Source of the DNA: Bacteroidota bacterium
GTDB taxonomy: Bacteria; Bacteroidota; Bacteroidia; B-17B0; Aurantibacillaceae
Length of the DNA: 64,000 nucleotides
Assembly: GCA_025362395.1 (NCBI GenBank)
Contig: JANYGK010000064.1
Location: 1-64,000 of the forward strand
Reading direction: 5' to 3'
The notes under the pieces were generated by a model, which ran no database searches, was not told the origin of the DNA, and saw only the letters and a program-made list of their open reading frames with translations. How positions within the stretch are numbered: position 1 is the first letter of the stretch; each line of letters starts with the position of its first letter. Position numbers and translations under genes: made by a program. Of this stretch, positions 25,622 through 29,378 are shown piece by piece.

Positions 25622-26233
25622 TTACCGGATTGTATCGTTAGGTAACATGTCAAAATTCTTAACGCCGTTTACCACTTCTATTTTTAATATTTTTAAATTG
25701 TCGTCAGAATAATAATAAACCTGTTTACTTTTCGGTGAGGTCATTTTTAACGCGTGTTTTCCTGTCTGCGTTAATACGCCTAGTTTTCCATAGCTTTCAG
25801 TGTACACTTCATCTCCCGCAACCGGGATCTCAAAATATAATTTTCCGGCCGACCATTTAATAGGCTTGGTTAAGGTGGTGTCTTTATAAGTGTATTTGTA
25901 TGTGTTACAGTCTATATCATAATGATTTTTTTTCCAAACGGTTCTTGAAATATACGGCGTGCCGTTAAGCGTGCTGGTTACGGTTGCTTTTAAAAGCACC
26001 CCGTCGTTATATAATGACTCTGTTTTAATATCGGCTTTTAATGACATAATAAACGAAAAATTAACGGTGCTGCGTGTCACGTAATAGTCAAAGCTTTTGT
26101 TTTTAAGATGATAGGCTTCAAGCATGCCAATTTTTATGCCTGCCACTTTTAACGTAAAGGAGCGGTTTTGCGCGCTAACAGGGCGTAAAGCAAAAATGGT
26201 TAAATATAAAATTATAATTATTCTTTGGGGCAT
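25622..26233 (-). CDS. exported protein, DUF6134/DUF3108-like, paralogue 1
   Basis: 203 residues with a signal peptide (cleavage near RPVSAQ) and a beta-rich body. It is clearly paralogous to the gene at 27091-27684: both contain KPIxWSAGKLYFEIPxAGxE and VYTESYGKLG, and both end VxNxxKNFDMxP. The fold pattern (long antiparallel strands, a conserved LYFEIP followed by YxESYGKLG) resembles periplasmic DUF6134/DUF3108-type proteins of Bacteroidota; the assignment is from memory of the pattern. It may bind lipid or a cell-surface component. Function unknown. Confidence 0.7.
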   Translation of the reverse strand: MPQRIIIILYLTIFALRPVSAQNRSFTLKVAGIKIGMLEAYHLKNKSFDYYVTRSTVNFSFIMSLKADIKTESLYNDGVLLKATVTSTLNGTPYISRTVWKKNHYDIDCNTYKYTYKDTTLTKPIKWSAGKLYFEIPVAGDEVYTESYGKLGVLTQTGKHALKMTSPKSKQVYYYSDDNLKILKIEVVNGVKNFDMLPNDTIR

Positions 26234-27090: not shown

Positions 27091-27684
27091 TCATTTATCC
27101 GGGATCATATCAAAGTTTTTGATGTTGTTGATCACTTCTATTTTCAAAAGTTCATTATAAGTGCTATTATAGTGGTAGATCTGCTTGCTCTCAGGGGTTG
27201 TCATCTTTAAACCGTTTTTTTTGACCTCATCCAAGGTTCCGAGTTTGCCATAGCTTTCGGTGTATACTTCAACACCCGCTGCCGGAATTTCAAAGTATAA
27301 TTTTCCGGCGCTCCATCTTATAGGCTTAGTAAGTGTTGTATCCGAATAAGTATAGTTTCGCGCGTGGCAATCTATAATGTATCGGTCTTTTACCCAAAGT
27401 GTTTTAGAACTATATGGTTTACCGTTTATAATACTGTTTACGGTTGCTTTAATCAAAATACCGTTCTGATAGATGGATTCTGTTTTTACATCTACTTTTA
27501 AGGTTATAAACTCAATGGTGCTATGGCTTGCATAAATATCTATTTTATTTTTTGCCACATGGCAGGCTTCCAGTTTGCCCACCTTTACACCTAATGTTTT
27601 AAGCGTAAATGTTTTTGTTTGCGCAAATCCTTTACTATAAAATAGTATCAAAACCGATAAGTATACAGCCCTATAAAACGTCAT
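27091..27684 (-). CDS. exported protein, DUF6134/DUF3108-like, paralogue 2
   Basis: 197 residues with a signal peptide (cleavage near SKGFAQ). It matches the protein at 25622-26233 along its length; shared blocks are KPIRWSAGKLYFEIP, EVYTESYGKLG and KNFDMIP. The two copies are separated by a lipoprotein gene, so the duplication was either followed by insertion or involved a larger unit of which one copy was lost. Function unknown. Confidence 0.7.
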   Translation of the reverse strand: MTFYRAVYLSVLILFYSKGFAQTKTFTLKTLGVKVGKLEACHVAKNKIDIYASHSTIEFITLKVDVKTESIYQNGILIKATVNSIINGKPYSSKTLWVKDRYIIDCHARNYTYSDTTLTKPIRWSAGKLYFEIPAAGVEVYTESYGKLGTLDEVKKNGLKMTTPESKQIYHYNSTYNELLKIEVINNIKNFDMIPDK

Positions 27685-27807: not shown

Positions 27808-28407
27808 TTAATTTACCGCAAAGCTCACGGGAGTTTCGGCATGTTCGCCGTCATCATCAATAAAAATAACCCTGAACCAATACAATGCCTGTGTTAAGCC
27901 GGCAATGACGGTTTTACTTTTTGAGGTCGTATTTGCTTCGATCCAGGTATTTGTGTTTGGATCGAGGCAGTACTGCCATTTGTACATTGTTTTTTTGCGG
28001 GCCTTTACATTCAGGCTTACAGTACCGTGGTTGGCTCCCTGCATAATTTTAAACTCGGCTTTGGTTCTGATGCTTGTCTTTTTCAGCTCCATACCTGCCA
28101 GGTGAACTATGGCCGGGTCGCCCTTTGCGGCATCCTGCACATTAGCCGCGTGCAGGTACATGGCATCCACCAACACGCTTTCCTTATCGCGTACTACGGC
28201 AGTAGCGTTTTTTCCTTTGTCAGCGGCCAGTAACAGGGCCGCGTCTACATCGTCGGCGGCGGCCGTCATTTTTGCCGCTGAGCTTACGCAGCTTGCTAAC
28301 ACTGCAGGGTTATCATTTGTTTTAGTCACGTAAAAACGTGCCTGTTGTACTGTGTCAGTCACCGATTTGCCGGAGAGATTGAGCACTACTTTGAAATTTT
28401 TCATCAT
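27808..28407 (-). CDS. helical plus FN3-like domain protein, 199 aa
   Basis: No signal peptide. Residues 1-105 are Ala-rich and helical (AAKMTAAADDVDAALLLAAD). Residues 110-199 form a fibronectin type III-like beta domain (YKWQYCLDPNTNTWIEANTT, ending GEHAETPVSFAVN). Similar two-part proteins of about 200 residues are common in Bacteroidota and usually lack a known function. The GC content is visibly higher than that of the flanking genes, suggesting a different history. It is the last gene before the 1.1-kb gene-free array region and has its own terminator. Confidence 0.65.
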   Translation of the reverse strand: MMKNFKVVLNLSGKSVTDTVQQARFYVTKTNDNPAVLASCVSSAAKMTAAADDVDAALLLAADKGKNATAVVRDKESVLVDAMYLHAANVQDAAKGDPAIVHLAGMELKKTSIRTKAEFKIMQGANHGTVSLNVKARKKTMYKWQYCLDPNTNTWIEANTTSKSKTVIAGLTQALYWFRVIFIDDDGEHAETPVSFAVN

Positions 28408-28650
28408 AAAAAATTTAGAGAATTATGTTGAAGTGTCTTTTGTATATTCTCTAAAGTAGCTGCAGGAGCTTTAGATTTTATTATAAGTAAGCGGTTCAAC
28501 ATTTAAGCACCTTATAATAACCTTTCATTTATTTCCGGATAAGAAACAGGGTAATTTTTTTGAATAGGCTTTGTTTTTAGGAGAGGGATAAATTTACATG
28601 TATAACGAAGCAGCGTTTTAAAAGTTACAAATAGGGTATATGACTTGGTA

Positions 28651-29378
28651 ACCGGTAGGTTTTAGCGCATAACCGGTACCATTTTTCGTAAACCAAATTT
28701 ACCGGTCCTTACACCGAAGCGTTTAATTTGAAACCGGGATCAATTTTTGACACCAAACAGTTTTATTTGGGGCCAAAGGTGCGTGTTTTCAAATCAAAGA
28801 ATTTTGTTTGGAACCAAAAGTGTGAACTCCCGAACCAAAGAATTTTATTTCGAACCACAAATATGAATTCCTGAAACACAAAAGTTTATCAGAAGCAAAA
28901 TAATTTTATTTGTAACCAAGGTATGAGCTCACGAACCAAAGGATTTTATTTCAAACCAAGTAATTTTACTTCGAACGAAAGAATTTTATTTCGAACGAAA
29001 GAATTTTATCTCAAACCGAATATTTTTATTTGAAACGAAAGAATTAGTTTCGGAATCAAAGAATTTTATGGAGAATCAAGGGTATGAGTTGCTTGGCCTA
29101 AGAATGTTATTTTGGAACGAAAGAAATTTATCTCAAACCAAATAATTTTATTTGAAACCAAAGAATTAGTTTCGGAATCAAAGAATTTTATAGAGAATTA
29201 AGGGTATGAGTTGCTTGGCTTAAGAATGTTATTTTGGAACGAAAGAAATTTATCTCAAACCAAAGAATTATTTACCGGGGGTACACCATTTTATTTGGAG
29301 CAAGGCGTTAAGCTTTCGCACCAAAGGAATTTATGTGGGACAGAAAGTGTGTGCTTTCAATGAACTAATTTTATTTGT
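28651..29378. repeat. phased array of about 36 degenerate 20-bp tandem units
   Basis: Consensus about GAACCAAAGAATTTTATTTC. Units step by exactly 20 bases from 28651 to 29110 (23 units), then continue with only a few 22- or 24-base steps to 29378. Two unit types alternate irregularly: type A ends in AATTTTATTT; type B has GTATGAG-like words in the middle (for example 28911-28930 and 29071-29090). Units share a head (AACCAAA or GAACGAAA) but differ at many positions, while the step is kept. The unit is not a multiple of three and no frame stays open, so the array is noncoding. There are no spacers, so it is not CRISPR. Confidence 0.9.
29031..29274. repeat. 122-bp tandem duplication inside the 20-bp array
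   Basis: Bases 29031-29152 and 29153-29274 are nearly identical (a handful of substitutions, for example GGCCTAAG against GGCTTAAG, and divergence over the last bases). Each holds six units, so the array has also grown by copying blocks, more recently than the single-unit steps. Confidence 0.85.

What the first reader, a model, noticed from the sequence alone, without database searches (positions are those of the whole stretch)
28651..29378. Noncoding array of about 36 strictly phased 20-bp units
Seen directly: from 28651 to 29110 every unit starts exactly 20 bases after the last, although unit sequences differ at many positions, and beyond that only a few 22- or 24-base steps occur. Constant spacing with drifting sequence suggests selection on phase. 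Near two DNA turns per step, it would place T-runs and AACCAAA heads on roughly the same face, giving curved DNA or a ladder of protein sites. Two unit types (TTTTATTT and GTATGAG) alternate irregularly. I know of no described family with this consensus. It may be a chromosome-organisation, partition or nucleoid-protein site, or an old satellite.
Basis: partly seen in the sequence, partly recalled or inferred. Interest (0 to 1): 0.85.

Follow-up and report, generated by a model that had tools for sequence, protein, structure and literature searches.

The report
Two-turn symmetric DNA ladder upstream
The array is real: it is one of many bacterial DNA 'ladders' whose rungs sit 20-22 bases (two helix turns) apart and tend to read alike on both strands, although the letters differ at every site, and such ladders nearly always stand upstream of two families of small proteins of unknown function, which suggests that spacing and symmetry, not the letters, are what the cell needs.

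Summary
The array exists, but it is not strictly 20 bp: 29 traced units step by 20 (19x), 21 (8x) or 19 (1x), mean 20.25, with a 122-bp duplication. It lies upstream of a gene (27808-28407, -) for a helix-bundle + Fn3-like protein of unknown function. Relatives of this gene, and a second family of similar layout, have an upstream array nearly everywhere we could look, in Bacteroidota and Verrucomicrobiota. With periods of 15-30 bp allowed, 85 of 94 loci gave 20, 21 or 22 bp. Unit sequences differ from locus to locus, yet units show inverted (dyad) symmetry far above controls (mirror control null). One relative, G061, has 22 further non-coding arrays in a random 400 kb, 21 of period 21, beside ordinary genes; a relative without these gene families had none. 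Gene-proximal features in many loci (paired LytTR-like sites 21 bp apart, ECF-like or sigma-54 promoters, a covarying leader RNA) are separable from the array. Predicted curvature and RNA hairpins were tested and not supported. Best reading: a DNA scaffold of symmetric sites, one per two turns, filled by a dimeric protein (inferred). Main rival: a copying process with a built-in two-turn step. No description was found in the open-access library searched.

The parts
28651..29378 (.). Phased array; 29 units traced between 28711 and 29297 (steps 19-21, mean 20.25); the flanks 28651-28710 and 29298-29378 are more degenerate
28989..29232 (.). Internal 122-bp duplication (28989-29110 and 29111-29232, 93% identical)
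28649..28678 (-). Paired site TACCGGTTATGCGCTAAAACCTACCGGTTA, two ACCGGT 21 bp apart, at the gene-proximal end of the array; 7 such sites in the genome, 0 in the reversed-pattern control; fits the LytTR-type layout by spacing
28600..28629 (-). Promoter-like TGTAAC-N16-CGTTATA, 49 bp from the paired site; ECF-like by consensus only
28466..28533 (-). Weak partial match (18 bits, E 0.09) to the leader-RNA model R1, in the expected place and strand
27808..28407 (-). Gene of the array: about 199 aa, helix bundle (residues 15-93) and Fn3-like beta-sandwich (116-198), function unknown

Best explanation
The array is a DNA-level scaffold: a ladder of weak, two-fold symmetric sites, one per two helix turns, filled side by side by a dimeric DNA-binding protein into a regular nucleoprotein stretch. 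Many weak sites make spacing and symmetry matter more than letters, so each array can drift to its own sequence while indels are removed. Beside the helix-bundle/Fn3 genes it stands upstream of an activator site and promoter and probably influences or insulates transcription; in some genomes it occupies many other intergenic regions too. Shown here: period, symmetry, locus-specific sequence, gene association, spread in G061. Inferred: a bound protein, its being a dimer, cooperative filling, any effect on transcription. The binding protein is unknown; the neighbouring Fn3-like protein is a candidate only by association.
For: Periods of 15-30 bp allowed: 85 of 94 loci gave 20 (16), 21 (60) or 22 (9), in two protein families and outgroup loci; Verrucomicrobiota loci give 21. 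31 arrays with no off-period step over 497 units at 34% mean divergence of adjacent units. Dyad symmetry mean z 1.75 +- 0.17, 53% at p<0.05, mirror control -0.04 and 7%; repeated in 24 arrays taken without regard to the gene families: 1.68 and 46%, mirror -0.27 and 0%. GT and AC pairs equal (898 vs 944), so no RNA-strand signature. No non-coding array in 400 kb of G003, which lacks both gene families.
Against: No binding protein shown. Nearly identical paralogous proteins (91-94%) have largely different arrays (L248/L249 share only part), which speaks against sequence-specific reading by the neighbouring protein. No helical phase relation between array dyads and the paired activator site (Rayleigh p>0.2). 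In G061 arrays lie beside ordinary genes. Units within an array show no extra within-unit base pairing.
Confidence: 0.4

Rival explanations
1. Mutational product: a copying process with a built-in step of two helix turns (slippage or template switching on protein-covered or palindromic DNA) makes and renews the arrays, which have little function of their own.
For: About 22 arrays in 400 kb of G061 beside ordinary genes; recent whole-unit duplications (122 bp here, 101 bp at C109); arrays differ between near-identical paralogs; palindromic units could be favoured by hairpin slippage; no phase relation to the activator site.
Against: The same 20-22 bp in two phyla; near-universal presence upstream of two gene families against none in 400 kb of G000 outside known loci and of G003; very few off-period steps at high divergence.
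Confidence: 0.3
2. Dedicated regulatory ladder of the neighbouring gene: array plus paired site control its promoter.
For: Always upstream, typically -650 to -330; paired sites 21 bp apart (32 pairs, shuffles 0) at 49-51, 60-62 or 82 bp from the -35, and 78-115 bp from a sigma-54 promoter in nine family-2 loci.
Against: Arrays occur without these genes (C109, G061, convergent L273); no phase coupling; promoter types differ between loci.
Confidence: 0.15
3. Array transcribed as a repeat RNA (hairpins or small-RNA array).
For: Dyad units could fold; a structured leader RNA lies downstream in 16 loci.
Against: No GT over AC excess on either strand, no within-unit pairing excess; array lies upstream of the inferred promoter; no Rfam match.
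Confidence: 0.07
4. Curved or wrapped DNA, shape alone.
For: Period 20-21 raises predicted curvature (4.6 vs 3.2 deg/turn for shuffles).
Against: Column-permuted units are equally curved (z 0.18 +- 0.13); the 22-bp period loses the effect. Angle table from memory.
Confidence: 0.05

Closest known systems
BrickBuilt minisatellite/MITE of Porphyromonas gingivalis (PMC4596501)
   Same: Bacteroidota, intergenic, tandem 23-nt units without spacers, many loci per genome
   Different: BrickBuilt copies share one unit sequence with leader and tail ends; here every array has its own sequence, period 20-22, dyad symmetry, and a gene-family association
parC centromeres bound by ParR (PMC9426499)
   Same: Direct repeats upstream of a gene, 20-bp repeats in pSK41, sequence differs between systems, higher-order nucleoprotein
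   Different: No ParM/ParR gene next to the array; chromosomal, up to hundreds of loci
BldC operators (PMC5859096)
   Same: Variable numbers of degenerate direct repeats filled cooperatively
   Different: 9-bp repeats, head-to-tail, not dyad; one protein with one consensus
LytTR-type operators (PMC11347149)
   Same: The paired site next to the array: 8-9 bp direct repeats about 21 bp start to start, upstream of -35
   Different: Describes the paired site only; array units do not carry its motif in general

Membership tests
BrickBuilt-like minisatellite/MITE | same unit sequence and inverted-repeat ends at all copies | tested here: not met
   Arrays differ from locus to locus; within the genome only one other locus matches this array by DNA search
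BrickBuilt-like minisatellite/MITE | head-to-tail 20-odd-bp units in intergenic DNA | tested here: met
parMRC centromere | parM/parR genes beside the repeats | tested here: not met
   Window neighbours are the Fn3-like gene, DUF6134 genes and a thioredoxin-like gene
LytTR operator (paired site only) | pair of about 9-bp direct repeats 10-13 bp apart upstream of -35 | tested here: met
   Spacing 21 start to start, 49 bp from the -35-like box
LytTR operator (paired site only) | bound by a LytTR regulator | not testable with these tools
   needs binding assays
Fn3-domain protein (window gene) | Fn3 beta-sandwich fold | tested here: met
   Model residues 116-198 match Fn3 structures, Z about 11 over 83 residues; Pfam fn3 below cut-off in paralogs
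Known structured RNA (leader) | match to an Rfam family | tested here: not met

The most novel reading that the evidence does not exclude
A general bacterial scaffold DNA defined by geometry rather than sequence: ladders of two-fold symmetric sites at two-turn spacing, each with its own letters, spread through some genomes and read by a protein (possibly of the helix-bundle/Fn3 families) that recognises spacing and symmetry.
Probability: 0.15. Interest if true: 0.95.

Novelty: categorically new. Interest (0 to 1): 0.85.

Why it matters
Tandem repeats are normally defined by their sequence. Here the sequence is free and the geometry is fixed across two phyla, with a nearly constant gene partner. 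If a protein reads such ladders it would be a new mode of DNA recognition or chromosome scaffolding; if a copying process makes them, it would be a mutation mechanism with a two-turn ruler. Either is testable in a culturable relative.

Tried and rejected
Curvature and RNA hairpins tested, not supported. Coding heptads: some 21-bp arrays are open in frame, but 20- and 22-bp arrays cannot be. Phage or plasmid carriage: single family proteins gave no match in phages, plasmids or viral contigs. Defence: no PADLOC match. Synteny of the window locus: the thioredoxin-like neighbour has no relative in the genus, so insertion could not be tested. Phase coupling of array and paired site: none. Gene-orientation bias of G061 arrays: none seen, few cases, crude gene calls. 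Unit-profile comparison overstated divergence for L248/L249, which share part of the array. First pattern for the paired site had the wrong spacing. Fold search gave only Fn3-domain rows, so the N-terminal bundle was barely tested. The two protein families are not shown to be related by profile (E 0.083). Literature search covered open-access PMC only; nothing on this kind of array was found.

Full report
The finding. The array at 28651-29378 is real and non-coding. A unit-by-unit trace finds 29 units with steps of 20 (19), 21 (8) and 19 (1), mean 20.25, so it is not strictly 20. A 122-bp stretch is duplicated. A second array of the same unit family lies on contig 109, upstream of an OmpP1/FadL-like gene.

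The gene. The array stands upstream of a gene (27808-28407, -) whose product is predicted, at mean pLDDT 94.7, as a strand, a three-helix bundle and an Fn3-like sandwich; Fn3 structures match the C-terminal part with Z about 11. Function is unknown: no Pfam, NCBIfam or PADLOC family reaches its cut-off. The genome has seven members; all seven have an upstream array, with different sequences and periods of 20 or 21.

Comparative test. The family occurs in 23 of 87 genomes of the taxonomic family, up to 12 copies. Upstream DNA of 60 more members was fetched and scanned without assuming a period. A second protein family from contig 9, also helices plus a beta-sandwich, was treated the same way. 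Tracing with 15-30 bp allowed gave 90 arrays in 94 loci: 60 of period 21, 16 of 20, 9 of 22, five others, weak or short. Members in other families of the phylum and in Verrucomicrobiota also have 20-21-bp arrays. Thirty-one arrays have no off-period step in 497 units although adjacent units differ at 34% of positions; the tracer penalises off-period steps, so overall counts lean towards regularity.

Symmetry. Units show inverted symmetry: mean z 1.75, 53% of 72 arrays at p<0.05 against permuted columns; mirror symmetry is null; 62.5% exceed the 95th percentile of cross-array comparisons. GT and AC mismatches are equal and pairing is no better within units than between them, which points to DNA rather than RNA, and to the array consensus rather than single units.

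Not only these genes. Random 400-kb samples gave: G000 none, G003 (no family genes) none, G047 two of period 21, G061 twenty-two non-coding arrays, twenty-one of period 21, none at a known family gene. Their units differ from each other and repeat the dyad result. Scaled up, G061 would hold about 200 arrays; this is an extrapolation from one tenth of one genome. Four genomes are too few for a firm rule that arrays need the gene families.

Neighbouring features. Next to the array many loci have paired sites [ACG]CC[AG][CG]TT[AG] 21 bp apart (32 pairs, 7 at 42, none in shuffles), which by spacing fit LytTR-type operators. Promoter-like boxes follow: TGTAAC-N-CGTTA in about a third of family-1 loci and TGGCAC-N5-TTG, a sigma-54 consensus, in twelve family-2 loci; in nine of these the paired site lies 78-115 bp upstream, mostly 79 or 100. 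Promoter classes are read from consensus only. A leader RNA with 21 pairs, 12 of them with compensatory changes, occurs in 16 loci and matches no Rfam family. Array dyads are not phased with the paired sites.

Judgement. Fixed: geometry and symmetry. Free: sequence. A protein-filled scaffold explains both; a copying process with a two-turn step explains the spread in G061 and the rapid turnover. Curvature and RNA are disfavoured. I rate it categorically new because no known repeat class tested here shares the combination, while noting that only open-access literature was searched and no experiment exists.

Noticed in passing
L128:1241-1363 (-), L125:2308-2429 (+) and 14 other loci; weak at window 28466-28533 (-): Covarying leader RNA (three-way junction, about 123 nt) before family-1 genes; no Rfam family.
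   Followed up: partly
Leaders of L134, L136, L150, L157, L228, L241, L244, L248 and others: Tiny upstream reading frame starting M(x)PP in 14 of 88 leaders (shuffles mean 1.0, reverse strand 1), perhaps a stalling leader peptide.
   Followed up: partly
L031:6440-7160: Second array of the window's unit family without an Fn3-like gene, upstream of an OmpP1/FadL-like gene; 101-bp higher-order repeat.
   Followed up: partly
L081:1280-2080: Array plus paired site with only a remnant of the Fn3-like gene downstream.
   Followed up: no
L310-L329 (G061): Twenty-two non-coding arrays in 400 kb beside ordinary genes, 21 of period 21.
   Followed up: partly
window 25622-26233 and 27091-27684 (-): Two DUF6134 paralogs next to the array gene.
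   Followed up: no
L082, near 4770: Paired ACCGGT site without an array upstream of an ExbB/TolQ-like gene.
   Followed up: no
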